From the NCBI RefSeq assembly GCF_900659865.1, contig NZ_LR213771.1, positions 1-64,000 on the forward strand: a DNA stretch of 64,000 nt, given 5' to 3'. The notes below the pieces were generated by a model. It was not told where the DNA came from. It did no database searches and worked only from the letters and a program-made list of their open reading frames with translations. The stretch's first letter is position 1; every line of letters begins with the position of its first letter. This document shows, piece by piece, positions 5,306 to 44,965 of the stretch. Origin of the DNA: Hyella patelloides LEGE 07179. GTDB taxonomy: Bacteria; Cyanobacteriota; Cyanobacteriia; Cyanobacteriales; Xenococcaceae. Position numbers and translations under genes: made by a program.

Positions 5306-7198
5306 CTAACTTATCAAAGATGACCAATAGTTAGTAACGATAGACCATTGACCGTTAAGTGCAGACCACAGTAAGAAACTGACTCCCAATAAAATTGTCA
5401 AAATATAAAACTGGGATTGTCCCGATACATTATATTTGAGGGCATTACCACTAAATAAAGTCGCCAAACTAACTAGATTAACTGCACCATCAACTATGTA
5501 GCGGTCGATCCAAGAAGTGATCTTCGAGAGGGATGATACCGCAGCTACTATGGTTACTTCGTACAGGCGATCGATATAGAAATCGTAAGCAAATAAATCT
5601 TGGAAAAATCTGACAGTTACTTTACGCGATCTTGCCCAAGCCTGTCTGACTTTGATTGCTGAACCAATAATACAGCCTAATACTCCTGAAGCTATTAACA
5701 ATGGTGTTGCTAACTGAATCACATTATCTTCTAAAGCTAACGGCGTATTGGGACTGAGCCATAAAGACCATTGCAAAGGTGCTAAAGGCGCAAGTAAAGT
5801 TACTACGGCTAAAGATATCATCGGCACTGCCATTTGCCAGGGTACTTCTGGCGCACGACGGGTTTTTGCTTGAGGTTCACCTAAGAAGATAATTCTAAAT
5901 AAACGAGTTAAGTTAATTGCCGATAACACATTAGCAAACATCACAATTGCTAACAACCACCAATCAACATCCCAAGAGCCACTAAACCAACGCTTGAAAG
6001 TCCAAAACATTCCTAAAGGAGTGATGCATAATAAGCCAGCACTTCCGACTACAAAAGAAATCGCTGTAGCAGGCATTCTCGACCATAAACCACCCATTTC
6101 AGTTACGTTTTGGTTACTGGTAGTGAGAATTACCGATCCTGCACTCATAAACAACAGAGCTTTAGCGATCGCATGAGTAAATAATAGTAAAAAAGCAATA
6201 TCTACCTGTCCCAAACCCACTGCAATAAATACCAGCCCCAAATAAGCACTCGTCGAATGGGATAAAGCCCGTTTGATATCAATCTGTGCGATCGCCATCA
6301 AGGAAGTACCAATAACTGTTACCGTCCCTAGAATAATTAAGGCATCAGAGGATACGGGAGAAAGAGTAAACACTGGTTGCAACTTAATCAACACATAAGC
6401 ACCAGCAGAAACTACAATCGAATTTCTTAAAATCCCCGCGGGGTTAGGGCCTTCCATTGCTTCATCGAGCCACAAATTAAGGGGAAACTGAGCGCATTTC
6501 CCTGTAGGCCCTGCAATTAATGATAAACCCACTAAAGCTGCCCCTAAAGAGTCCAAAGGATGACTGTTTGACCATGTTGTGAGATCGGAAAAATCCAAAT
6601 CTGCACCATAAGCAGACATGGTGACTATTCCCATTAAAAGTAAGATATCTCCTACCCTTTTCGTCAGAAAAGCATCTCTAGCTGCTGTAACTACCAGGGG
6701 TTGAGCATACCAAAAGCCCACCAGCAGATAGGTAGATAAAGTTAGTAACTCCAGCAAGCCATAAGAAAGCAATAAAGAATCACTTAAAGCAATTCCCCCT
6801 AAAGCAGCTTCAAAAAAGCCCATCAGACCAAAGAAGCGAGCTACAGACCAATCTTTTTCCATATAGCCTAAAGCATAAAGCTGTGTCAGTAAACTGATAC
6901 CAGTTACTAACTCTAAAGCTCCCAAGCTAACAGGAGACAATTCTATCGCTAAGGTCAATTTTAAATCTGCCACTTGCAACCAGTCAAACACCAGTTTTTG
7001 AGTTTGTTGTGTCCAAATGGAATTAAAGACAATCGATCCATGAACAAAAGCAACCAGGGTCATCAAAATATTGATATATGCTGCTGGCTTAGGTCCAGTG
7101 CGACGTATTAATCCCAAAGACCAAGGCAAGGTTAATATTGCCCCTAAAAATCCATAAACAGGTATAAGCCATACAGTATTAAGCAGGAACTCAGCCAT
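5306..7198 (-). CDS. ndhF4: NADH dehydrogenase-like subunit NdhF4
   Basis: The distal antiporter-like subunit of the NDH-1MS' CO2-uptake complex, 630 residues with about 16 membrane helices. GPTGKCAQFPLNLWLDEAM followed by EGPNPAGILRNS is the conserved proton-channel segment of NdhF/NuoL proteins, with lysine and acidic residues in place. A TTG six bases upstream is in frame; I chose the ATG (MAEFLLNTVW), which matches family N-termini. It heads the minus-strand series ndhF4, ndhD4, cupB and is divergent from ccmK2 across a 726-bp regulatory gap. Confidence 0.9.
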   Translation of the reverse strand: MAEFLLNTVWLIPVYGFLGAILTLPWSLGLIRRTGPKPAAYINILMTLVAFVHGSIVFNSIWTQQTQKLVFDWLQVADLKLTLAIELSPVSLGALELVTGISLLTQLYALGYMEKDWSVARFFGLMGFFEAALGGIALSDSLLLSYGLLELLTLSTYLLVGFWYAQPLVVTAARDAFLTKRVGDILLLMGIVTMSAYGADLDFSDLTTWSNSHPLDSLGAALVGLSLIAGPTGKCAQFPLNLWLDEAMEGPNPAGILRNSIVVSAGAYVLIKLQPVFTLSPVSSDALIILGTVTVIGTSLMAIAQIDIKRALSHSTSAYLGLVFIAVGLGQVDIAFLLLFTHAIAKALLFMSAGSVILTTSNQNVTEMGGLWSRMPATAISFVVGSAGLLCITPLGMFWTFKRWFSGSWDVDWWLLAIVMFANVLSAINLTRLFRIIFLGEPQAKTRRAPEVPWQMAVPMISLAVVTLLAPLAPLQWSLWLSPNTPLALEDNVIQLATPLLIASGVLGCIIGSAIKVRQAWARSRKVTVRFFQDLFAYDFYIDRLYEVTIVAAVSSLSKITSWIDRYIVDGAVNLVSLATLFSGNALKYNVSGQSQFYILTILLGVSFLLWSALNGQWSIVTNYWSSLIS

Positions 7199-7924
7199 TA
7201 ACAAGCCCTATAAATTTACAACATTAAAATTGATGCTTGTAGTGAGCTTTCAGTTGATTGAAAAAACACTACCTAAAGTTTATTTATATTTTCTTAAATC
7301 TTAATCATACCAGGTATTAAGAATCCTAATTATTTCATCCACATCAAAAAAAAATTATCTTAGATTAGTCAGAAACTATTAATCACTGGTAAATATTCAA
7401 CAATGAGGATAGCTCAAACTAAGCATCATAATTTACGATGACTAACACATCACTTTGATTGATAATTATTCTCACAGTCCAATACATTAAGTTATTGTTA
7501 TTTTATGTTTTGATGCTCTGACTCAATTTAAATTGAGATTAAAGTATTTAAGATCACTAACATCGGCTGTCAAAAGAATTTACTGTAAACATTTGTGATG
7601 ATTTGTAAGTTACCTATCCCTGATTAAGACTTAGTATTAAAAAACTATAAAAAATAGCCAAAACCATGCAATCTTGGCGTTCTAGAACTTTTTTAATCTT
7701 GCCCAATCACTAAGTATTAATTCTCATTAACTATCAAATAAAAAAATATAATCAGAATTTATATTGTCAAAGGGTACAAGGTTATCTATCCTTAATTATG
7801 GGAAGGTAATGTAGCCACTCCCGTGAGTTGTCAACCTAACTTCTAGATTTGACAGCTTATTGTCATTAGACAAAATTATTGATTGTGGCTTGAACAAAAA
7901 GGAATAAAAAAGGAATAGAAAGTT
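7199..7924. promoter_or_regulatory. divergent regulatory region between ndhF4 and ccmK2
   Basis: An AT-rich gap holding the promoters of two divergent CO2-concentrating operons. A TTGACA at 7849-7854 forms an inverted repeat with TGTCAA at 7829-7834 and could be a -35 element or operator. I could not assign a convincing -10. Just before ccmK2 there is a purine-rich AAAAAAGGAATAGAAAG leader. No genes or RNA genes are visible. Control by a LysR-type regulator (CmpR/NdhR) is plausible from known biology, but I cannot point to a site. Confidence 0.45.
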
Positions 7925-8236
7925 ATGTCTATTGCAGTAGGAATGGTAGAAACCCTAGGATTTCCCGCAGTGGTAGAAGCTGCTGATGCGATGGTTAAAG
8001 CAGCCAGGGTAACCCTAGTGGGCTATGAAAAAATCGGTACAGGTCGCGTAACAGTAATCGTTCGTGGTGACGTATCTGAGGTACAAGCTTCTGTCTCTGC
8101 TGGTGTAGAAGCTGCTAACAGAGTAAATGGTGGTGAAGTTCTTTCGACTCACATTATTGCTCGTCCCCATGAAAACCTGGAATATGTTTTGCCCATCCGC
8201 TACACCGAAGAAGTAGAACAATTCCGAACGTATTAA
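7925..8236 (+). CDS. ccmK2: carboxysome shell hexamer protein CcmK2
   Basis: A major beta-carboxysome shell protein (single BMC domain, 103 residues) that forms flat hexamers with a charged central pore for bicarbonate and RuBP. The start [20 protein letters not shown], the [16 protein letters not shown] segment and the end [11 protein letters not shown] match CcmK2, which ends at this point, whereas CcmK1 is longer. First gene of the ccmK2-ccmK1-ccmL-ccmM-ccmN cluster. The next gene is 61 bp downstream. Confidence 0.96.
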
Positions 8237-9054: not shown

Positions 9055-11112
9055 ATGCCAGTCCGCACTAACGCGGCTCCCCCTACTCCTTGGTCTAGAG
9101 ATTTCGCAGAACCTCAAGTGGATAGTAGTGCCTATGTTCATTCGTTTTCCAGACTTATTGGAGATGTTCGTGTAGGCTCTCATGTGTTTGTTGCTCCTGG
9201 TAGCTCCATCAGAGCAGATGAGGGAACACCATTCTACATAGGGGACAGTACCAATATCCAAGACGGTGTAGTAATTCATGGCTTGGAAAAGGGGAGAGTA
9301 AAAGGAGAAGACGGTAAAGACTATTCGGTTTGGATCGGCAAAAATACTTGTATTACCCACATGGCACTGATTCATGGTCCTGCTTATGTGGGTGATGAAT
9401 GTTTTATTGGTTTTCGTTCTACGGTATTTAATGCCAAAGTGGGCGATGGCTGTATTGTCATGATGCACGCTTTGATTCAGGATGTAGAAATTCCACCAGG
9501 TAAGTACATACCTTCAGGAGCAGTGATTACCAATCAGCAACAAGCAGATCGTTTACCAGATGTTCAAGAAAGCGATCGATCTTTTGCCCATCACGTAGTA
9601 GAGGTGAACGAAGCCCTGTTAGCTGGATATCAGTGTGCGGAAGACTCAGCTTGTATTAGTCCCATCCTAAATGGTGTTAATCATTCTCCGTCAAATTCTT
9701 TAGAGACAACTACAGATAATAACTATATAAATTCAGTAGGAAACATGAGTACAAGTAACGATATTAGAGGGCAGTTACGCTCTTTATTGGCACAAGGATG
9801 CACTCTCACAATTGAACACGCTAACAAGCGTCGTTTCAAAACTAAATCTTGGCAAACTGGTGGTACGATTACTGGTCGTCGCGAAGATCAAGTAATAGCT
9901 CAGTTAGATAGTGTTCTTCAACAACACGCAGGAGAATATGTCAAACTTGTAGGAGTTGACCCCCAAGCAAAACGCCGTTTAGCAGAAGTTATTGTCCAAC
10001 GCCCAGGGGATGATGCTCCTAACTTACGGATGAGCAACCACAGTAGCAACGGCAACGGTAATGGTAATGGTAATGGTTTCTCCAGTAATGGCAACAGTAC
10101 AAGTAAGCTTAGTGGTGATATATCCGCGCAAATTAGCTCTTTAGTTAATCAAGGTTGTCGCATAGGTATCGAAAGAGCCAGTAAACGCCGTTTTAAAACC
10201 AAATCTTGGTTAACAGAGGGACAAGTTGATGGCAGTGTTCAGCAGGTAATGAGCAAAGTGCAGTCTGTGGCATCTCAGTATCCTCAAGACTATATTCAAC
10301 TCATTGGTGTTGACCCCAACGTCAAAAGAAGAATAGCCGAAATCATCGTACAAAGACCAGGAGAAGGATTAGCAGCTAGCTCCAGCAGTAGTTCTGGTTA
10401 TAGTAATAGTGGTAGCTATAGCAGCAGCAATAGTCACAGTGGGAGCAGTAGCTTAAGCCCAGAAGCAATACAGCAAGTATCTTCTTTACTATCTGCTGGC
10501 TATAAAATCGGTACAGAACACGCCAACAAACGCCGTTTCAAAACTAAATCTTGGCAAACTTGTTCCCCTATTGAAAGCACCCGCCAATCTGATGTCATTG
10601 CATCATTAGAAGCTTGCTTACAAGAACACTCAGGGGAATATGTCCGCATGATTGGAATTGACTCTGCTGCGAAACGTCGAGTTTCCGAAACTATTATTCA
10701 ACGTCCTGGTAATGGCAATAGTGCAGTAGCTACAACTACTACCAAAACTACTAGCTACAGCAATGGTAATAGTAATGGTAATGGTGGCAGCTACAGTAAT
10801 GGGAATGGTAATGGTCGCACTCACGGCTATAGCAACGAATTTAGCAATAAACATCTGACTGATGAAGCAATGCAAGAAGTTCGTTCTTTATTATCTGCTG
10901 GCTATAAAATCGGTACAGAACACGCCAACAAACGCCGTTTTAAAACCAAATCTTGGCAGAGTTGTTCTCCCATTGAAAGTCGCCATGAACTAGATGTAGT
11001 TGCAGCCCTAGAAGCTTGCTTGGTAGAACACGCAGGAGAATATGTCAGATTAATCGGAATCGATCCTGGTGCAAAACGCCGAGTTTCCGAAACTATTATT
11101 CAACGTCCATAA
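9055..11112 (+). CDS. ccmM: carboxysome scaffold CcmM: gamma-CA domain plus four Rubisco SSU-like repeats
   Basis: Core scaffold that nucleates beta-carboxysomes. Residues 1-210 are a left-handed beta-helix gamma-carbonic anhydrase domain with the presumed zinc ligands His75, His102 and His107 in VVIHG and THMALIHG. Cys194 and Cys200 (QCAEDSAC) are positioned as in the redox-controlled active enzyme of Thermosynechococcus. Four Rubisco small-subunit-like (SSUL) domains follow, each with KRRFKTKSW near residues 256, 376, 491 and 626, joined by Ser/Gly/Asn-rich linkers. These domains condense Rubisco. An internal start at codon 231 should give the short form. The 685-residue length fits a four-repeat CcmM. 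Confidence 0.95.
9737..9747 (+). promoter_or_regulatory. internal ribosome binding site and start for short CcmM
   Basis: The string TAGGAAAC directly precedes an in-frame ATG (9745-9747, Met231 of CcmM), exactly at the junction between the gamma-CA domain and the first SSUL repeat. Short CcmM (M35-type, repeats only) is known to arise from an internal start. Here it would be 455 residues. The spacing from AGG to ATG is a little short. Confidence 0.65.
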
Positions 11113-27498: not shown

Positions 27499-28614
27499 AT
27501 GGTTAAGGCTTCCTTAGATTGGTCAGATGATACTGAGTTGGTGAGTTTGATTTTTACAGTTTCTCCGAAAAAAGATGTAGCATTACCAACTAACTATGCC
27601 AAAGGTTTGCACGCTTGGTTTTTAAGCCAAGTTCTAAAAAAAGACCCCCAACTTTCTCAATATCTTCATGATGGACAATCGGAAAAACCATTTACCATGT
27701 CCCGTCTTTTTGGCGAGATGACAGAAAATGAAGATCGACTAATTTTATTTGAAGGAAAAACCTATCATTGGTATCTGTCGGCATTGTCTCAACGGGTGGT
27801 GCGCTGGTTTCGACATTGGCTACATAATATGCCGAGATACATTATTTTGAATTTCAAGCAACCACCTGAAAGTACTTTCCCCGACAAGATTTATCTCTCA
27901 ATACAATCGGTAGACATTGCTTTACCTGCCACTACTTATAGCAATCTATTGCAAACTATCTCTAGAAAAAAATTTGCTCTTAGTTTTTTGAGTGCGACTA
28001 GCTTTCGCAGCAAAGGCAATCACTATCCTTTGCCCGCCCCCGATAAGTTGTTTCACAGCTATCTCCGCCGTTGGAATCATTTTGCACCCCATAAATTCGA
28101 CCGAGATTTATTTTTGCTTTGGATTGAAGAAAATGTCATTATTACCCGACATCAATTAGATTCTCTTAGAGTTCCAGGAGGAAAACGTGGTTTGGTAACG
28201 GGTTTTGTAGGTTCGGTAGAATTGGATTTAGCAAAATCTACCAGCGATAATCCTGAGTTTATCAAGCTTTACAAGGCATTGGGACAACTCGCCCCCTATA
28301 GTGGTACGGGTCATAAAACTACTTTTGGTTTGGGTCAAACGCGGTTGGGCTGGCAAGATCGGCAACCAGATATCTTATCTATGTCTGTGGAAACTTTTAT
28401 TGTTCAACGACAAAGAGAAATTTTTGAAGCATTAATGGCAACTCAAAAGCGTACTGGTGGCGATCGCGCTAAGAAGATTTGTCAGACGCGATCGCTTATT
28501 TTGGCTCGTCGTGAGTTTGGGGAATCTTTGGTTTCTATTGCGGAAGATTTAAAAATGCCCTATGACACGGTTAAGACTTATGCTAAGTTAGCCCGTCGTG
28601 CTTTGAGGGGTTGA
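27499..28614 (+). CDS. cas6: Cas6 CRISPR endoribonuclease with C-terminal helix-turn-helix extension
   Basis: Cleaves CRISPR repeat RNA. Residues 1-296 form a RAMP-fold Cas6: FALSFLSATSFRSKGNHYPL, LRRWNHFAPHKF, RGLVTGFVGSVEL and the glycine-rich loop GTGHKTTFGLGQTRLG. Residues 297-371 are an added domain with RTGGDRAKKIC and a probable helix-turn-helix, LVSIAEDLKMPYDTVKTY. The same domain ends the two proteins encoded between the nearby arrays, with about half of 67 positions identical by eye. The second Cas6 in the window (44.2 kb) lacks it. I used the ATG, not the TTG nine bases upstream. It sits 371 bp before array 1. Confidence 0.88.
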   Translation: MVKASLDWSDDTELVSLIFTVSPKKDVALPTNYAKGLHAWFLSQVLKKDPQLSQYLHDGQSEKPFTMSRLFGEMTENEDRLILFEGKTYHWYLSALSQRVVRWFRHWLHNMPRYIILNFKQPPESTFPDKIYLSIQSVDIALPATTYSNLLQTISRKKFALSFLSATSFRSKGNHYPLPAPDKLFHSYLRRWNHFAPHKFDRDLFLLWIEENVIITRHQLDSLRVPGGKRGLVTGFVGSVELDLAKSTSDNPEFIKLYKALGQLAPYSGTGHKTTFGLGQTRLGWQDRQPDILSMSVETFIVQRQREIFEALMATQKRTGGDRAKKICQTRSLILARREFGESLVSIAEDLKMPYDTVKTYAKLARRALRG

Positions 28615-28817
28615 TTTCCATAGTTGCAAGAGCTTTCTTTGGGATCTGTTTCTGTCGAACCCAAGTGTGGAAATTACCATCAGCAAAAAAAATGGCTGAA
28701 ACCAAGATAATATATTGATTTGATTGAAGGTTTGTCGATTAAAAACACCTTGACGATCTATATCTAGTAAGGATTTAATATCAAATACTTAAATGTTTGC
28801 TACAAATAATTTTACCT

Positions 28818-28847
28818 TGTAGTGATAATTCATGAATTATCACTACA
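28818..28847. repeat. perfect 30-bp palindrome in the array 1 leader region
   Basis: TGTAGTGATAATTCA followed directly by its exact reverse complement, with no spacer. The near edge lies 138 bp before the first repeat of array 1. It could be a DNA operator, a cruciform/hairpin, or a copy of a dispersed cyanobacterial palindrome family. The rest of the gap 28615-28985 is AT-rich and includes the array leader. Confidence 0.85.
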
Positions 28848-28985
28848 GATTATATGTTGCATTCTTTTTTGTATTTCATATAAGCTTTTTTTCTCTTTGT
28901 TTGCAGATTGCTTGTGCTAGCATTTATAGGACTTCGATAAAATGCACCTGGAAAACTAAATACTGTCTGGTTTCTAAGGTACAGA

Positions 28986-29694
28986 CTTGAAATGACCGAA
29001 AATCCTCTCTGGGGATGGAAACTATTACGCAAAACTCCATCATGGACAAAAATTATAGCTTGAAATGAGCTAAAATCCCCTCTGGGGATGGAAACTGACC
29101 GTTATTGACCTCAATCCCTGTAGGTCTGTTATCTTGAAATGAGCTAAAATCCCCTCTGGGGATGGAAACCTCTAGTATTGCGATCGCGCCAACTTAACAG
29201 CTTCGACTATTTCTTGAAATGAGCTAAAATCCCCTCTGGGGATGGAAACTTCGATTTAACAAGGGCAAAAGCAATTCATATTCTTCTTGAAACAACCGAA
29301 AATCCCCTCTGGGGATGGAAACTTGTAATCGATATTTTTTCTAGCTTCGCGAATCGCTGTTCTTGAAATGAGCTAAAATCCCCTTTGGGGATGGAAACCC
29401 TAGCATATTTTGTTTTCCTGGGATCATAGAAAAAGCTATCTTGAAATGAGCTAAAATCCCCTCTGGGGATGGAAACAAGTAACCTCCCGTTAGAAAGCGC
29501 AGACACTGTATCCTTGAAATGACCGAAAATCCCCTCTGGGGATGGAAAAACTAAATCTTTTGCCAATTCATATTGCAATTTATTTTTGAAATGAGCTAAA
29601 ATCCCCTTTGGGTATGCAAACAAATAATGAGATGTTCCACCACCAATAATAATTTCTGTTTCAATAACTCATAACCCCGCGAGGGGATGGAAAC
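28986..29694 (+). CRISPR. CRISPR array 1: nine type A repeats plus one type B repeat
   Basis: Nine 37-nt type A repeats start at 28986, 29059, 29133, 29213, 29286, 29362, 29440, 29513 and 29585. They begin CTTGAAATGA and end TCTGGGGATGGAAAC. Spacers are 35-43 bases. The last two repeats are degenerate (final C lost; CTT changed and the stem mutated), so the leader is on the left and transcription is to the right. Some units read ACCGAAAAT in place of AGCTAAAAT. A tenth repeat at 29658-29694 is type B, like array 2. The tag expected on crRNA 5' ends is ATGGAAAC. Repeat-proximal leader GGTTTCTAAGG matches the other arrays. Confidence 0.96.
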
Positions 29695-29921
29695 AATTGC
29701 TTAATGCATTGTATAGACGATCGCATTTTTCAAACCAAGCATCCCAGTGTTCAAACATTCACTGTTATATAGCGCGATCGCATAATAGAAAATCTTAGGA
29801 GAATGGCGATCGCAATAAAGCCTGAAATATAGTATAATACTCTCAAACAAAATCCCAGTCGCGAGCATGGTGCGACAACACCAATAAACTCCACTGGGAG
29901 TAACCTACAGGAGAGGTCACA
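29695..29921 (+). promoter_or_regulatory. promoter and structured 5' leader of the first inter-array gene
   Basis: A -10 element TATAAT is at 29833-29838. Transcripts would start just before a hairpin whose closing stem is CCCAGT (29854-29859) with ACTGGG (29893-29898). Inside it GTCGC pairs with GCGAC. A six-codon open frame (MVRQHQ) lies in the loop. The ribosome site AGGAGAGG precedes the ATG. The whole region is homologous to 31875-32099. Confidence 0.7.
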
Positions 29922-31001
29922 ATGAGTATTTTACGTTGCGAAACAAACGGTATTGAATTTTTCACAGTCCAAGCTACAGGCGAATCAGGGATTAGTCATC
30001 GCGGATTAGCAATTTTATGTGGTGTAACTCACTGGACTATAAATGAATTAGTAAAAAACCTGGAAGCCAAACAAGCAGCAAAACGCCTAAAAGCTTTTAT
30101 TGGTAAGGATTTGCACCTGGAAGGGGTTTATAAGAAAAAAGGTGGTGTGGTCAAAATTTTAAGGGCTGACTTTTGTGCTGCAACTGTCAAACACTACGCC
30201 CTCGAAGGTAGAGAAATCGCCGAACAAAGCATGGATAAATTCATGACTTTAGGGATTAACACCTGGATTCAATCCATTACAGGCTGGCAAACTCAAGAAA
30301 CTCCGCCAATCACTACAGAAGAGTTTAACCCCGATACTATTCAGCTTCAGTCCGATATTGATAGCGAATATTTACTCCAACAAATCGAATTACTGCAACA
30401 CGATCTCATGGTGGCACTCAAACACCGCCATGCAATTCACAATATCGTCGAAAAACCTACCGTTGTCGATTTATCTCTCAATCAGATTGTACATACTGCG
30501 GTTCACGTTCAAGCACAAAAACTCAATCAAGCCTTAGCCACTTTACAATCTATTCAAGATAAAATCGAAGTCTTAACAACTATAAGACAGCAGATAGACA
30601 AATATAACAACTTATGGCAATCTTTTGCTCGAATTACTCACTTAGTTGCCGAATTACGCCAAGAAAACACCAACTTAAAACAAGTCATTGAACAACAAAA
30701 AATCTTATTTGCTCCCCGCAGAAAAGCTCAAGCTCAATTACTTACAAATAAAAATCTAGAAACAGTCTTAGAACCCAGAATTAAAGAAATTATCGCTATT
30801 TTAATGAAATCTCAAATCAGAACGGGAGGTCATAGAGCGATCGCAATTTGCACCAGAAAAGCTACAATCTATGCCATGTATGAAATCGGTCAAAGCCTCA
30901 ATGAGATTGCCATATCCCTACAAATGCCTTACGAAACAGTCAAAACTTATGTCAAGTTAACGAGAGCAGATATTAGAAACTACTATTCGGCTCAAAACTA
31001 A
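29922..31001 (+). CDS. antirepressor-like protein with Cas6-type C-terminal HTH, copy 1
   Basis: 359 residues. The N-terminal part (1-45) reads GIEFFTVQATGESGIS with a probable helix-turn-helix, GLAILCGVTHWTINELV. Residues 80-125 resemble phage/plasmid antirepressors (ATVKHYALEGREIAEQ, then FMTLGINTWIQSITGW). A central helical, probably coiled-coil part includes KHRHAIHNIVEKP. The C-terminal 70 residues carry RTGGHRAIAIC and MPYETVKTYVKLTR, homologous to the tail of the Cas6 at 27.5 kb. It lies between arrays 1 and 2. Most likely a DNA- or RNA-binding regulator; the function is inferred from domains only. Confidence 0.75.
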   Translation: MSILRCETNGIEFFTVQATGESGISHRGLAILCGVTHWTINELVKNLEAKQAAKRLKAFIGKDLHLEGVYKKKGGVVKILRADFCAATVKHYALEGREIAEQSMDKFMTLGINTWIQSITGWQTQETPPITTEEFNPDTIQLQSDIDSEYLLQQIELLQHDLMVALKHRHAIHNIVEKPTVVDLSLNQIVHTAVHVQAQKLNQALATLQSIQDKIEVLTTIRQQIDKYNNLWQSFARITHLVAELRQENTNLKQVIEQQKILFAPRRKAQAQLLTNKNLETVLEPRIKEIIAILMKSQIRTGGHRAIAICTRKATIYAMYEIGQSLNEIAISLQMPYETVKTYVKLTRADIRNYYSAQN

Positions 31002-31473
31002 AGATATCCTTGGGAACAATCAATAATTGCTTAAGGCGATGGATAATAGTAACCAAGTACTTTGAAAACTAAATATTTCTTAGGGTCACACCGCTTTTTT
31101 TACAATCGCGATCGACACAATAACTTCAAACGCTGAAATGTACTTTTTTCATTGAGATGCGTCGATGCCCAATACTGTTCGGTTAGTCGCTCAAGTTATT
31201 TTGTCCGCCCCCTAAATCCCCCAATCCTGGGGAACTTTTACAAATCTGGCTCCCCACTCGCGCATTCCTTAGCTGCTTACAAATCTGGCTCCCCCAAAGT
31301 TGGGGGCTGGGGGGCTTAACCGAACGGTATTGCGTCGATGCCAGTCTGATCCAGGCTTTGAGAAGATAGATCGTTCCATGTTTTCTCAATAGGAGTCAAA
31401 TATTGACCAGTACATAGTTATTGTGTCGATTTGTCCTCTGAAACCCTTGCTCTATAAGCTCTCTACAGCGAAG
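31002..31473. other. leader region of array 2 with an inserted MITE-like element
   Basis: The gap between the first inter-array gene and array 2. It holds the MITE-like element listed separately and the array leader. The repeat-proximal part (CCTTGCTCTATAAGCTC) resembles that of array 3 (CATTGCCCCATAAGGGTTC), and CGTCGATGCC (31333-31342) lies 131 bases before the first repeat, as in array 3. No gene. Confidence 0.6.
31170..31332. mobile_element. MITE-like element with terminal inverted repeats
   Basis: 16-base ends CAATACTGTTCGGTTA (31170-31185) and TAACCGAACGGTATTG (31317-31332) are inverted repeats with one mismatch. They are flanked by the direct repeat GCGTCGATGCC (31159-31169 and 31332-31342), which looks like a target-site duplication sharing one base with the right end. 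The inside is GC-rich with two copies of ACAAATCTGGCTCCCC and no coding capacity. It has split the leader of array 2. Confidence 0.7.
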
Positions 31474-31874
31474 TCTTTCGATCTACTTAACCCCGTAAGG
31501 GGATGGAAACAGGTGATTTCCCCAGAACCCCTCAAAAAAGAGATCGCAGTTTCAATAACTCATAACCCCGCAAGGGGATGGAAACAAGAAACAGATTCGC
31601 TAGTTTGTCTGAAGATTTTACCGTTTCAATAACTCAGAACCCCGCAAGGGGATGGAAACCTAGATTCGATACTACATCCAAGATATCGCTTCTGTTTCAA
31701 TAACTCAGAACCCCGCAAGGGGATGGAAATTTGCGATCGCTCCCCATGGTGAAACCAATAACGTAGTTTCAATAACCCATAACCCCGCAAGGGGATGAAA
31801 ACATATTGAGAATTTTTTGGAGTTCGGAATCACTAAAGTTTCAATAACTCAGAACCCCGCAAGGGGATGGAAAC
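31474..31874 (+). CRISPR. CRISPR array 2: six repeats, type B
   Basis: 37-nt repeats start at 31474, 31549, 31623, 31694, 31766 and 31838. Five start GTTTCAATAACTCA with small changes and end CGCAAGGGGATGGAAAC. The first (31474) has a different 5' half (TCTTTCGATCTACTT) closer to the array 3 type but the same stem and tag. Spacers are 34-38 bases. Repeat 4 ends GGAAAT and repeat 5 reads GATGAAAAC. The leader is on the left. Sequence beyond the last repeat is homologous to the sequence beyond the type B repeat that ends array 1. Confidence 0.95.
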
Positions 31875-32099
31875 AATTGCTTGATGCACTAACAGACGAT
31901 CGCATTTTTAAAACCAAGCATCCAAATGTCCAAACATCCGCTGTTATATAGCGCGATCGCATAATTAGAAATCTTAGGAAAATGACGATCGCCAAAGTAA
32001 CCAAAATGTAGTATAATACCTCTAAGACAAAACTCAGTCGCGAGCATGGTGCTGACACACCAATAACTCCACTGAGAGTAACCTAATATAGAGGTCACA
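31875..32099 (+). promoter_or_regulatory. promoter and structured 5' leader of the second inter-array gene
   Basis: Homologous to 29695-29921. The -10 TATAAT is at 32012-32017. The hairpin closing stem is CTCAGT (32033-32038) with ACTGAG (32071-32076), a compensatory change relative to CCCAGT/ACTGGG in the other copy. The six-codon frame in the loop reads MVLTHQ. Ribosome site GAGG precedes TCACAATG. Confidence 0.7.
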
Positions 32100-33203
32100 A
32101 TGAGTATTTTACGTCGCGAATCAGAAGGTATTGAGTTTTTCACTGTTCGAGCAACAGGCAAATCTGGGATGAGTCAATCTGGTTTGGCTCGGATGTGTGG
32201 AGTTAAACCTCATGCAGTCAATCAACTATTAAAATCAGTTATCACGAGTTCTTGCCCAGATTTTCTGAAACCTTTGCAGAATAAAGAATTGACACTTGGT
32301 ACGAGTTATCATGAGTTTAAAAATATCACTATTATCAAAGACTCAGTTTGCGCGGTCATTTTGGAATGGTATGCTTTTGAATCTCAACGTCCAACAGAAA
32401 AAGCTCGTCAAGCATTCAGACAATTTGCAGCAGTAGGAATTAGGACTTGGATACAGTCTTTAACTGGTTGGCAAAATTCTGTTACTTCTCCTATGTCTCC
32501 ACCAACAAAACAATCTGTAACAGAGAAAAAACTATCTAAAACTTTGGAAGATTCAGAATTATCTCCCTTCATCCAAGAGATTAATGCCTTACAAACTCAA
32601 TTAAAAATCGCCTTGAAGCATCGCCACGCTATCCATAATCTTGTAGAAAAACCCGTTGCAGTAGATTTATCTTTAAATCGCATTATCCATACAGCAGTAC
32701 ACGAACAATCAATAAAACTCAATCAAGCTTTGACCTCTCTGGAAACTATCAAACAAAAAGCGATCGCCTTAGAGCTTCTAACTTTACAAATCCCTGAATC
32801 TCAGAACATTGCCTTAACCCTAAACCAATTAACCAACACCATCGAACAGATGCGCCAAGAAAATAATCAACTAAGACAAGTGATTCAACAACAACAAGTT
32901 CTTTTTACTCCTCGCAGAAAAACTCTATCTCAACTAAAATCTTCAGACAGTGCAGATTTGAATGCTTTGCTTCAACCTAGAATTCAAGAAATTACTGAGA
33001 TTCTAATGCGATCGCAAATCAGAAAGGGAGGCAATCGGGCGATCGCAACTTGTACCAGAAAAGCTACAATCTATGCCATGTATGAAATCGGTCAAAGCTT
33101 AAATGAAATTGCCAAATCTCTGCAAATACCTTACGAAACGGTGAAAACCTACGTTAAGTTAACTAGGGCAGATATGAGAGACTATTATTCTGAGCAAAAC
33201 TAA
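32100..33203 (+). CDS. antirepressor-like protein with Cas6-type C-terminal HTH, copy 2
   Basis: 367 residues, a paralog of the gene at 29.9 kb. The C-terminal 67 residues differ from that copy at about nine positions, whereas the N-terminal half is much more diverged. Domains: GIEFFTVRATGKSGMSQSGL with helix-turn-helix LARMCGVKPHAVNQLL, antirepressor-like FAAVGIRTWIQSLTGW, conserved KHRHAIHNLVEKP, a coiled coil, and RKGGNRAIATC plus IPYETVKTYVKLTR. It lies between arrays 2 and 3. Purifying conservation of the C-terminus suggests that it is the functional core. Confidence 0.75.
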   Translation: MSILRRESEGIEFFTVRATGKSGMSQSGLARMCGVKPHAVNQLLKSVITSSCPDFLKPLQNKELTLGTSYHEFKNITIIKDSVCAVILEWYAFESQRPTEKARQAFRQFAAVGIRTWIQSLTGWQNSVTSPMSPPTKQSVTEKKLSKTLEDSELSPFIQEINALQTQLKIALKHRHAIHNLVEKPVAVDLSLNRIIHTAVHEQSIKLNQALTSLETIKQKAIALELLTLQIPESQNIALTLNQLTNTIEQMRQENNQLRQVIQQQQVLFTPRRKTLSQLKSSDSADLNALLQPRIQEITEILMRSQIRKGGNRAIATCTRKATIYAMYEIGQSLNEIAKSLQIPYETVKTYVKLTRADMRDYYSEQN

Positions 33204-33606
33204 TTGGTTTTTTTCTTAATAACGGCGATCGCGCCATAAAACCAATTCATTGCCAGTTCTGAACTATTGTTTTGATATAACCAAAAATATCCAAAATCTT
33301 AGGAAATAATAAATAGTTTCAGGATTACTTATAAATATTGATATAGTTTTGATACTAAAGAACCTTGACAATTTAATAAATTTCTCTAGTAAGTTTCCCA
33401 ATATTTTCTATCAGTATTCGGGGGGTAAGCCCAACCTCTGAATACCCTATAATTTGGTTGACCTCCGTCGATGCCTCTCACTGTATGGATTCTAAGCCGA
33501 TAGCACTTGGGCTTATTGCAACTAATTTCTATTAATTTGCTGTTTTAAATTAGCCCGCGAAAAACTGCATTTGAGGCATTGCCCCATAAGGGTTCTAAAG
33601 GCTAGT
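33204..33606. promoter_or_regulatory. leader region of CRISPR array 3
   Basis: An AT-rich gap with CGTCGATGCC at 33466-33475, 131 bases before the first repeat, and a repeat-proximal block CATTGCCCCATAAGGGTTC. Both features recur in the leader of array 2. No gene is visible. Confidence 0.55.
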
Positions 33607-33867
33607 CTTTGAAAACACGTACCCCGTCAGGGGATGGAAACCTTATATGAACATTAAAGCATTAGTCTAATGCTAACCTTTGAAAACACGTACCCCGTCA
33701 GGGGATGGAAACGATATTATTAAGCATAATATCTTTAACAACACTATCAAAAACTTTGAAAACACGTACCCCGTCAGGGGATGGAAACCATATGACAACC
33801 TTGTCCTGAGATGGAATTTTACTTACAACCACCTTTGAAAACACGTACCCCGTCAGGGGATGGAAAC
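33607..33867 (+). CRISPR. CRISPR array 3: four repeats, type C
   Basis: Four identical 35-nt repeats at 33607, 33678, 33754 and 33833, beginning CTTTGAAAACACGTACC and ending GTCAGGGGATGGAAAC. Spacers are 36, 41 and 44 bases. The CCCC/GGGG stem and the ATGGAAAC tag are shared with arrays 1 and 2. The leader is on the left. Perfect repeat identity suggests a young or actively homogenised array. Confidence 0.96.
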
Positions 33868-43018: not shown

Positions 43019-44198
43019 ATGCTAACTTCTAATATTGTTCTAGAAAAAGACAAGGCTTTTGAAATCAAAGTAATTGAACTCACTTGTCCTAATTCACTAA
43101 TTCATATTGGCTCGGAAGTATCAAAACTCAATCCTTTTGAATATGTTAAAGATAACGATCGTGTTTACTATCCAAATCAGTCAGCCTTAATTAAATCTTT
43201 GCATCAAAGAGGTCGCTTAAAAGATTACATTCATAAAATAGAAACTGGAGAAGAAATCGCATTACTATTACAAGACACTTTTGGAGATTGGAAAAATCTA
43301 AGATCTGTTGATAATGAACTTATTTTTCCCCGCAATAAAAGAATTAAGAGATGGACAAATAAGGAAATTAAAGACATACGTCCGATGATTCGTAACGGCA
43401 GAGGAGAATTATATATTCCAGGTTCTTCAATTAAAGGTGCAATCAGAACCGCGATCGCTTATCATATAATCAATCATGAAGATACATATCAAGTTCTTGA
43501 AACTAAAAGAATTAGCGCGATAGAAAAAACATTACGAGAAAAGTTAAACACAGAAGAAAATAAATTAAAATTCAAAAAGAAACAAAAATTTGCTGACGAT
43601 AAATTATTTATGGAAAGCATATTTTCTGATTTCCAGCTTATTTATAAAGGTCATACAGCATTTGGAAAAACTGATATATCAAATACAGATTTTATGCGTG
43701 CTATTCAAATAACTGACACTAAATCTATTATTAAACAAAAAAACCATAATTTATCTGTTGTCCCAGAAGTAATTATCTGTAGTCACGATCGAGATAATAG
43801 AGCAAAATAATGTAACTCAAAATATTATTGATATTTGCCGAGATTTTGCTCAAGCACAATGGAATTATGAGCGTCATTACTGGTTACATAATAATTGGAA
43901 AAATAATCTAAATGCTAAAGATACAAATGGAGAAAAAATTGATTTATATTTAGATGATATACGAAAATTTTATCACCAAGAAAAATGTCCTTACAATCTT
44001 CGTCTTGGTTGGGGAGGTGGTTTGTCTGGAACTACTATTAGCTCTTTACTACAAAAAGATATTGTAGAAAGTATTAGGGATACTTGCGGAAAAGAAGCAC
44101 CAGGTTTTGAAGCACCAAAATCTAGAAGAGTTATTGCCGATCGAGATCGAGAAATTCGCTATGTCCCTGGTTGGGTTAAATTAACTGAAAAATCATAA
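43019..44198 (+). pseudogene. csm5: type III-A effector subunit Csm5, split by a frameshift
   Basis: The crRNA 3'-end RAMP of the Csm complex, read in two frames. The first 263 residues (VIELTCPNSLIHIGSEVSKL, then GRGELYIPGSSIKGAIRTAI) end at TAA 43808-43810. The remainder, NNVTQNIIDICRDFAQAQWN to RYVPGWVKLTEKS, continues in the +1 frame, with the glycine-rich LRLGWGGGLSGTTISS, to TAA at 44196-44198. Together they give about 390 residues, normal for Csm5. Removing one A from the run at 43804-43807 restores the frame. The change lies between 43768 and 43810. It may be a real mutation, recoding or a base error. The TAATG junction with cas6 is retained. Confidence 0.85.
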
Positions 44199-44965
44199 TG
44201 CTCATCCGCTCCACTTGGACATTAACTACTAAAGAAACTGCTGTAATTCCCCGTTCCTATTGCCTCGAACTAGTCAAACAGCTACATCAGCAAATGGGCT
44301 TGGAAATCGGGACAGAACAAATTCCCAGTACAACTTTTTCGGGATTATTAGGTTATTACACTAGTTCCCAAGATTTTTATAGTTTTCTCCCCAATGAAAC
44401 CTATCAACTATCTCTTTCAGGATTAACCGAAAATAGTAGTAAGGCGATCGCAAATTTAGACTTATCCAATTCTCTAGAATTTCTCGGTGCAAAATTCATA
44501 GTAAGCGATCGCCAAAAGGAAATTACTAGCTACGATCGCTTATACACAGAATTAGTCGCCGAAGAACCAGAACCCATTAGATACTTTAGTTTGAAATTTC
44601 TTTCACCTACCAGTTTTTCGTCCCAAGGAAGCTATTTACCTTTACCAGTTCCCAGCTTAATGCTACGTAGTTGGTTAGAAAAATGGAATCATTTTGCCCC
44701 AATCTATTTAGGTGGAGACGAGTTAGTCAGCTATCTCAGTCAAGCTATAAGAATTAAACGCCATCGGCTACAAACTCGCAATTTTCAGATTCATCGTGGC
44801 TATGTTACTGGATTTACAGGCAGTATAGACTTACAACTACCTTATAAGGTCGAACCATTAATTGCCAATGTCGCCCATCTCCTAATTCAATATGCAGCCT
44901 TTTCGGGTACGGGTATGAAAACTCGTTTGGGTATGGGTCAAACTATTACTTGTTCTGATAAATAA
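44198..44965 (+). CDS. cas6: Cas6 CRISPR endoribonuclease, short form
   Basis: A second Cas6, 255 residues, without the helix-turn-helix tail of the Cas6 at 27.5 kb. Shared landmarks are FLSPTSFSSQGSYLPLPVPS, LEKWNHFAP, GYVTGFTGSIDLQL and the glycine-rich FSGTGMKTRLGMGQT. The start overlaps the csm5 stop (TAATG). End of the csm operon; no cas1 or cas2 follows. Confidence 0.93.
   Translation: MLIRSTWTLTTKETAVIPRSYCLELVKQLHQQMGLEIGTEQIPSTTFSGLLGYYTSSQDFYSFLPNETYQLSLSGLTENSSKAIANLDLSNSLEFLGAKFIVSDRQKEITSYDRLYTELVAEEPEPIRYFSLKFLSPTSFSSQGSYLPLPVPSLMLRSWLEKWNHFAPIYLGGDELVSYLSQAIRIKRHRLQTRNFQIHRGYVTGFTGSIDLQLPYKVEPLIANVAHLLIQYAAFSGTGMKTRLGMGQTITCSDK

What the first reader, a model, noticed from the sequence alone, without database searches (positions are those of the whole stretch)
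27499..33203. Cas6 tail and two inter-array proteins share one helix-turn-helix domain
The Cas6 at 27.5 kb ends in a 75-residue domain (RTGG..A..IC, then LKMPYDTVKTYAKLARR) absent from the second Cas6. Two larger proteins, one between arrays 1 and 2 and one between arrays 2 and 3, end in the same domain (RTGG/RKGG, MPYETVKTYVKLTR); about half of 67 positions match the Cas6 tail by eye. Their N-terminal halves look like antirepressors. Seen: homology and alternation with arrays. Inferred: a system in which array-linked DNA- or RNA-binding proteins work with Cas6, perhaps regulating array transcription or guiding pre-crRNA to Cas6.
Basis: partly seen in the sequence, partly recalled or inferred. 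Interest (0 to 1): 0.85.

Follow-up and report, generated by a model that had tools for sequence, protein, structure and literature searches.

The report
Cas6 tail on phage-type regulator genes
Two proteins encoded between the CRISPR arrays of this cyanobacterium are hybrids: a front half and a gene-control RNA of the kind found in phage and plasmid regulator genes, joined to a DNA-binding tail otherwise found almost only on the CRISPR enzyme Cas6; the protein family is already listed in a defence database, but its job is unknown.

Summary
The 75-residue C-terminal domain of Cas6 (27499-28614) recurs in the two inter-array proteins P1 (29922-31001) and P2 (32100-33203) at 50-53% identity, and nowhere else in the genome. 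It is a sigma-70-region-4-like helix-turn-helix. It is not peculiar to this locus: about 28% of 390 sampled cyanobacterial genomes carry it, and every essentially complete gene inspected that carries it is a Cas6, except P1/P2 and their two orthologues in Xenococcus PCC 7305, which have the same array-Cas6-P layout. PADLOC already lists the family (PDLC01151: two HTH domains, 'the C-terminal domain often fused to Cas6'), so the pairing itself is not new.

New here: (i) the N-halves are BstA/KilA-N-related; (ii) all four P genes carry a conserved, covarying 5' leader RNA that hides the Shine-Dalgarno, shared with phage and plasmid KilA-N, Ant and BstA genes and absent from Rfam; (iii) N-halves are orthologous between the two genera while tails are homogenised within each genome; (iv) every P gene starts 143-228 bp after a CRISPR repeat.

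Best reading: phage-type regulators that borrowed Cas6's docking domain to act at arrays. The docking and any effect on arrays are inferred, not shown.

The parts
27499..28614 (+). Cas6 endoribonuclease with C-terminal HTH tail (371 aa from ATG)
   Evidence: TIGR01877 5e-22; Pfam Cas6 4e-19; AF2 pLDDT 86.9, best PDB match TtCas6 4c9d E=4e-16; Y33, H38, H57, K63 invariant in 65 sequences
28387..28611 (+). Cas6 HTH tail, residues 297-371, sigma70-region-4-like, four helices
   Evidence: linker before it only 20% conserved
28986..29694 (+). CRISPR array 1 (10 repeats of about 37 nt); its last repeat (29658-29694) is of the array-2 type
29833..29838 (+). -10 box TATAAT of P1 (sequence reading)
   Evidence: alignment
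29852..29924 (+). structured 5' leader RNA of P1, ending at the start codon; last hairpin pairs the Shine-Dalgarno AGAGG
   Evidence: CM hit 98.4 bits; fold z=-4.1; covariation
29922..31001 (+). P1: BstA/KilA-N-related N-half + middle/coiled coil + Cas6-type HTH tail (359 aa)
   Evidence: PDLC01151 1.4e-135, BstA 1.5e-10
30774..30977 (+). HTH tail of P1
31160..31342 (+). two CGTCGATGCC motifs (31160-31169 and 31333-31342) in the leader region of array 2
   Evidence: 3 in window vs 0.03 expected
31474..31874 (+). CRISPR array 2 (6 repeats, the first one divergent)
31989..32017 (+). promoter-like TCGCCA-17-TATAAT of P2 (10 of 12)
   Evidence: such matches are not above chance overall, but this one sits just before the leader
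32031..32102 (+). structured 5' leader RNA of P2
   Evidence: CM hit 93.9 bits
32100..33203 (+). P2: paralogue of P1 with a different N-domain and the same tail (367 aa)
   Evidence: PDLC01151 4.2e-149, BstA 2.1e-15
32976..33179 (+). HTH tail of P2
   Evidence: Sigma70_r4_2 1e-4
33466..33475 (+). CGTCGATGCC motif in the leader of array 3; same motif before both Xenococcus arrays
33607..33867 (+). CRISPR array 3 (4 repeats)
44198..44965 (+). second Cas6, without tail, next to the type III-A csm operon

Best explanation
SHOWN: the tail is a sigma-70-region-4-like HTH that is a standard C-terminal domain of a large cyanobacterial Cas6 family. P1 and P2 are chimeras: their N-half and their 5' leader RNA (and, on weaker evidence, their middle) belong with phage/plasmid regulator genes (BstA, KilA-N, Ant), and their C-terminus is this Cas6 tail, probably taken once (P tails are monophyletic beside Cas6 tails). 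They sit just after the last repeat of an array, keep two old N-domain types, and have tails homogenised within each genome. INFERRED: the tail is a docking domain with one conserved ligand, most likely DNA or the transcribing polymerase at CRISPR arrays. It holds Cas6 where pre-crRNA is made, and lets P1/P2 bring phage-sensing N-domains to the same place to tune array or cas expression. Their own output is restrained by the leader hairpin that covers the ribosome-binding site.
For: Tail only in Cas6 and P genes. HTH confirmed by Sigma70_r4_2 in 10 of 10 tails and by AF2. Recognition helix 79% and HTH 68% identical among 65 Cas6-HTH, against 47% (N-half) and 61% (body). Same layout in Xenococcus. 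Quartet sites: codons 21-200 support between-genus orthology 81 to 9; codons 281-396 support within-genome pairing 52 to 5; tail dS 0.66-0.74 within a genome vs 1.95 or saturated between. P tails monophyletic (99) and grouped with a Cas6 tail at 100. Leader: 99.3% of cells paired, 23 double changes, 0 of 500 shuffles; shared with phage BstA-family (1e-32), Ant and KilA-N genes. Repeat core 143-228 bp before every P start. Weak Cbp1 similarity of the P2 HTH.
Against: No binding, expression or phenotype data. Many Cas6-HTH genes lie more than 5 kb from any array found (19 of 50 and 33 of 44), so the tail need not act on the adjacent array. Gene conversion between close tandem copies can homogenise tails without selection. 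P-type genes are known in two genomes only. The AF2 model of P2 is poor (pLDDT 63.6).
Confidence: 0.42

Rival explanations
1. P1/P2 are BstA-like defence (abortive infection) proteins that merely live in a defence island; the Cas6 tail serves as a generic nucleic-acid-binding domain and has no role at arrays.
For: N-domain matches BstA; the leader RNA also precedes a phage BstA-family gene (E=1e-32); BstA acts on replicating phage DNA and has a control element (aba) overlapping its gene start (PMC8585504).
Against: The C-terminal half of BstA is absent; tail found only with Cas6; each P gene is placed right behind a repeat in both genera.
Confidence: 0.25
2. The tail binds RNA or protein: it helps Cas6 dimerise, hold pre-crRNA or hand crRNA to an effector, and P1/P2 compete with or recruit Cas6 and so tune crRNA processing.
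For: Tail fused to an RNA endonuclease; strongly conserved recognition helix despite differing repeats fits a protein or general ligand; tails of P1/P2 homogenised as if sharing one partner per genome.
Against: The fold is a DNA-binding type (Foldseek sigma-E region 4 on -35 DNA, prob 0.98, though E above 0.1).
Confidence: 0.2
3. P1/P2 are selfish or anti-CRISPR genes: a phage/plasmid regulator took the Cas6 tail to block Cas6 or its docking site.
For: Phage/plasmid-type leader and N-half; a related plasmid-like KilA-N protein also ends in a domain shared with its ParA-adjacent neighbour protein, as if borrowing a neighbour's binding domain were a habit of the group.
Against: No P-type gene or tail found in IMG/VR contigs; purifying selection (dN about 0.16 vs dS above 1) and stable chromosomal place in two genera.
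Confidence: 0.08
4. The association is a by-product of recombination between repeats; the P genes have no function linked to CRISPR.
For: The last repeat of array 1 is of the array-2 type and lies in the duplicated block, so repeats may move P cassettes.
Against: Two intact copies kept in two genera with low dN/dS.
Confidence: 0.05

Closest known systems
PADLOC PDLC01151 'HTH' (two HTH domains, C-terminal one often fused to Cas6)
   Same: P1 and P2 match full length (E 1e-135, 4e-149) and the Cas6 tail matches its C-terminus (6e-23). Xenococcus PCC 7305 proteins match at 1e-171 or better.
   Different: Nothing structural; these are members. The database note, as far as shown, gives no function, no leader RNA, no BstA/KilA-N link and no evolutionary pattern.
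BstA (prophage abortive infection protein, PMC8585504)
   Same: Related N-terminal domain; a control element at the start of the gene; the same leader RNA precedes a phage BstA-family gene.
   Different: C-terminal half of BstA replaced by coiled coil and Cas6 tail; located at CRISPR arrays, not in a prophage. The aba element is reported to act as DNA, the leader here covaries as RNA.
Cbp1 of Sulfolobales (CRISPR repeat-binding protein, PMC10883916)
   Same: Small HTH protein linked to arrays; weak profile match of the P2 HTH (NF040595 E=1e-3, far below cut-off).
   Different: Cbp1 has three HTHs, binds repeats and is archaeal; no repeat binding tested here and the tail's recognition helix does not vary with repeats.
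Sigma-70 region 4 / LuxR-type HTH
   Same: Fold and TVK...R recognition helix.
   Different: No sigma regions 2-3; the domain is a tail of Cas6 or P.
Thermus Cas6 (4c9d, 4c8y)
   Same: Cas6 body fold.
   Different: Solved Cas6 chains of 230-280 aa have no such tail.

Membership tests
PADLOC PDLC01151 (CRISPR-linked double-HTH protein) | Full-length profile match | tested here: met
   P1 1.4e-135 over 1-352, P2 4.2e-149 over 1-360
PADLOC PDLC01151 (CRISPR-linked double-HTH protein) | C-terminal HTH shared with Cas6 | tested here: met
   Cas6 residues 300-370 match positions 259-329, 6.4e-23
PADLOC PDLC01151 (CRISPR-linked double-HTH protein) | Linkage to CRISPR loci | tested here: met
   Both known genomes: P genes between arrays and Cas6-HTH
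Cas6 endoribonuclease | RAMP fold, G-rich loop, catalytic His | tested here: met
   G-loop 91% identity; H57 and K63 invariant. The catalytic role is by analogy with Pyrococcus Cas6 (own knowledge).
Cas6 endoribonuclease | Cleaves the local CRISPR repeats | not testable with these tools
   needs an in vitro cleavage assay
[quoted passage not shown]
   PADLOC BstA 2.1e-15 for P2 residues 8-127, PHROG 6287 4e-7; weaker for the P1 type
BstA | C-terminal BstA domain | tested here: not met
   BstA profile does not extend past about residue 200 in P1 or 127 in P2
BstA | Abortive infection activity | not testable with these tools
   phage assay needed
Cbp1 | NF040595 equivalog cut-off (140 bits) | tested here: not met
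   19.1 bits for P2, 14.1 for P1
Cbp1 | Binds CRISPR repeat DNA | not testable with these tools
   EMSA needed
Rfam RNA families (leader) | Match to any described RNA family | tested here: not met
   Only weak CRISPR repeat matches in 26-46 kb, none at the leaders

The most novel reading that the evidence does not exclude
An innate phage-type (BstA/KilA-N) switch, with its own RNA-controlled leader, has been wired into CRISPR by taking Cas6's docking domain: two sensors of different specificity share one Cas6-type address tag, so that phage infection is sensed at, and acted on at, the arrays themselves.
Probability: 0.22. Interest if true: 0.85.

Novelty: new member of a known kind. Interest (0 to 1): 0.57.

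Why it matters
An extra DNA-binding tail on Cas6 in more than a quarter of sampled cyanobacterial genomes has, as far as could be found, no assigned role. P1/P2 give a natural experiment: the same tail moved to another protein, kept under selection and homogenised within each genome. If the tail docks at arrays, it would show how crRNA processing is coupled to array transcription and how an innate defence module was joined to an adaptive one. The leader RNA is a by-product of general use: an undescribed, covarying element that marks antirepressor-type genes of cyanobacterial phages and plasmids.

Tried and rejected
Rejected: the D4/D6 duplicated block before P1/P2 as CRISPR leader; it is the promoter and 5' leader RNA of the P genes, while the array leaders lie upstream of the arrays with CGTCGATGCC. 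Judged unlikely: a repeat-specific reader, because the recognition helix is strongly conserved while repeats differ (inference). Rejected: Cbp1 membership. Led nowhere: PDB sequence search with P2; Foldseek of the weak P2 model (no E below 0.001); first genome-contig scan with P1+P2; viral scans for P-type proteins and tails; a possible dispersed repeat inside the P2 N-domain. The paper behind PDLC01151 could not be found in the held library. Caution: the 75-of-81 count comes from a scan seeded on tail motifs, so conservation was measured on the other sample.
Full report
OBSERVATION. The window is a cyanobacterial chromosome segment (rbcL/carboxysome genes at 8-15 kb) with a type III-A csm operon (Cas10, Csm2-5), two cas6 genes and three CRISPR arrays. 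The first Cas6 (27499-28614) ends in a 75-residue domain that recurs at the C-terminus of the two proteins lying between the arrays, here called P1 (29922-31001) and P2 (32100-33203). Identities are 47% and 44% (BLASTP E=1e-17 and 7e-16), 50-53% over the 64-residue core. P1 and P2 are paralogues (51%). The whole genome holds exactly these three copies. The second Cas6 lacks the domain.

WHAT THE TAIL IS. Each of ten tails matches Sigma70_r4_2 in Pfam (best 1.6e-7). AlphaFold2 on 41 Cas6-HTH sequences gives a confident model (pLDDT 86.9) with a Cas6 body (Foldseek to Thermus Cas6 4c9d, E=4e-16) and a separate four-helix tail after a variable linker. In a sample of 390 genomes of the class, 108 carry the tail. 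In the loci inspected from that sample, every full-length tail ORF other than P1/P2 is a Cas6, at roughly 41-55% identity to the window Cas6 body. In a scan of 84,980 bacterial and archaeal genomes, the 79 best loci are all cyanobacterial and 75 of 81 tail ORFs are Cas6 fusions; the rest are two P-type genes and short broken or separated tails. So the tail is a regular part of a large cyanobacterial Cas6 family. Among loci with 5 kb of sequence on both sides, an array lies within 5 kb in 31 of 50 (first sample) and 11 of 44 (second), so the gene is often, not always, beside an array. Neighbours include Csm3/Cas7, Csx21 and Cas1.

PRIOR KNOWLEDGE. PADLOC family PDLC01151 is described as 'Two HTH domains ..., the C-terminal domain often fused to Cas6 (see WP_0065099...)'. 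It matches P1 at 1.4e-135, P2 at 4.2e-149 and the Cas6 tail at 6e-23. The fusion and the double-HTH protein were thus already noticed; from memory, not checked, they come from a CRISPR gene-neighbourhood survey. No function was found in the held literature.

A SECOND GENUS. Xenococcus sp. PCC 7305 (G429/L161/L178) has the same set: P gene, 16-repeat array, Cas6-HTH 28 bp after it, a two-repeat remnant, second P gene. No other P-type gene appeared among 391 genomes of the order or in IMG/VR. In all four cases the P gene starts 143-228 bp after a CRISPR repeat core, in array orientation.

CHIMERIC EVOLUTION. N-domains pair between genera (76-77% identity; paralogues 43-45%), whereas tails pair within a genome (84% and 90%; between genera 68-72%). 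Informative sites in the quartet switch sharply: codons 21-200, 81 for between-genus orthology against 9; codons 281-396, 5 against 52. Tail dS is 0.66-0.74 within a genome but 1.95 or saturated between; N-domain dN is 0.16 between orthologues and 0.53 between paralogues. Two old N-domain types have thus been kept while tails were homogenised, most simply by gene conversion. A tree of tails makes the P tails one clade (99) joined to a Cas6 tail of another family at 100, so the Cas6-to-P direction is the simplest (short alignment, midpoint root).

A LEADER RNA. The block duplicated before P1 and P2 is not a CRISPR leader. It holds a TATAAT box and a 73-nt 5' leader with one long and one short hairpin; the short one pairs ACCU with the AGAGG Shine-Dalgarno. 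A covariance model built from the four P leaders finds a third copy in the genome, before a KilA-N gene on a plasmid-like contig (ParA, RecD-like helicase), and copies before an Ant-like gene in a sister genus and before phage KilA-N/BstA and Ant genes in IMG/VR contigs. On eight distinct sequences 99.3% of cells pair, nine pairs show double changes (23 cells), and no shuffle of 500 reaches this (the alignment is fitted to the structure, but slid controls fall to 39-51%). A broader search finds it in 10 of 322 genomes; the downstream ORFs that were read include genes that look like Ant, Rha and DinD types by eye. It has no Rfam match. The middle of the plasmid KilA-N protein also matches PDLC01151 outside both ends (3e-5; weak hhalign support). 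P1/P2 therefore most likely descend, with their control RNA, from phage/plasmid-type regulator genes.

MECHANISM. Shown: domain identities, distribution, layout, leader structure, mosaic evolution. Inferred: the tail is a docking domain. Its recognition helix is among the most conserved parts of Cas6-HTH (79% against 47-61% for the two halves of the body; the Cas6 G-loop is higher at 91%), although repeats differ, so its ligand should be common to all: a shared DNA element, the polymerase, or a shared protein. Cas6 held near nascent pre-crRNA is the simplest use. P1/P2 would use the same address to bring a phage-sensing N-domain to arrays; the leader would keep their dose low. I give this 0.42. 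The main rival is a BstA-like defence protein unrelated to array control (0.25).

VERDICT. Real, well-bounded and CRISPR-linked; the family and the fusion are already listed, the function open. The phage-type leader, the BstA/KilA-N origin and the mosaic evolution are additions of this study.

Noticed in passing
window 29852-29924 and 32031-32102; L161 8052-8124 and 13488-13560; L260 8227-8297; L267 1501-1573; L269 3406-3476 and 11981-12050; L271 7302-7372: Undescribed 5' leader RNA with Shine-Dalgarno-covering hairpin, shared by P genes and by KilA-N, Ant and BstA-family genes of cyanobacterial phages and plasmids; 10 of 322 genomes of the order have it.
   Followed up: yes
L260 (G000:C168) 7030-8229 and 9248-9664: A plasmid-like KilA-N protein ends in two copies of a domain also found in the protein beside ParA (50% identity): another case of a KilA-N protein carrying the domain of a neighbouring gene.
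   Followed up: partly
window 29658-29694: The last repeat of array 1 is of the array-2 type and is 94% identical with the array-2 end over 51 nt; the duplicated P cassette starts inside an array.
   Followed up: partly
window 31474-31510: The first repeat of array 2 (CTTTCGATCTACTTAACCCCGTAAGGGGATGGAAAC) differs strongly from the others in its 5' half; perhaps a relic of another array type.
   Followed up: no
L128 (G123:C137) about 9876-10123: Short repeated stretches resembling codons 44-92 of P2 lie about 0.7 kb before a 93-repeat array; decayed P gene or a small dispersed repeat.
   Followed up: partly
G000:C210 11187-11531: A third Cas6 in the same genome; the tail search found no copy there.
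   Followed up: no
L069, L080, L084: Some Cas6-HTH genes are split by stops or frameshifts, and in L080 the tail is a separate 98-aa ORF just after the cas6 ORF.
   Followed up: no
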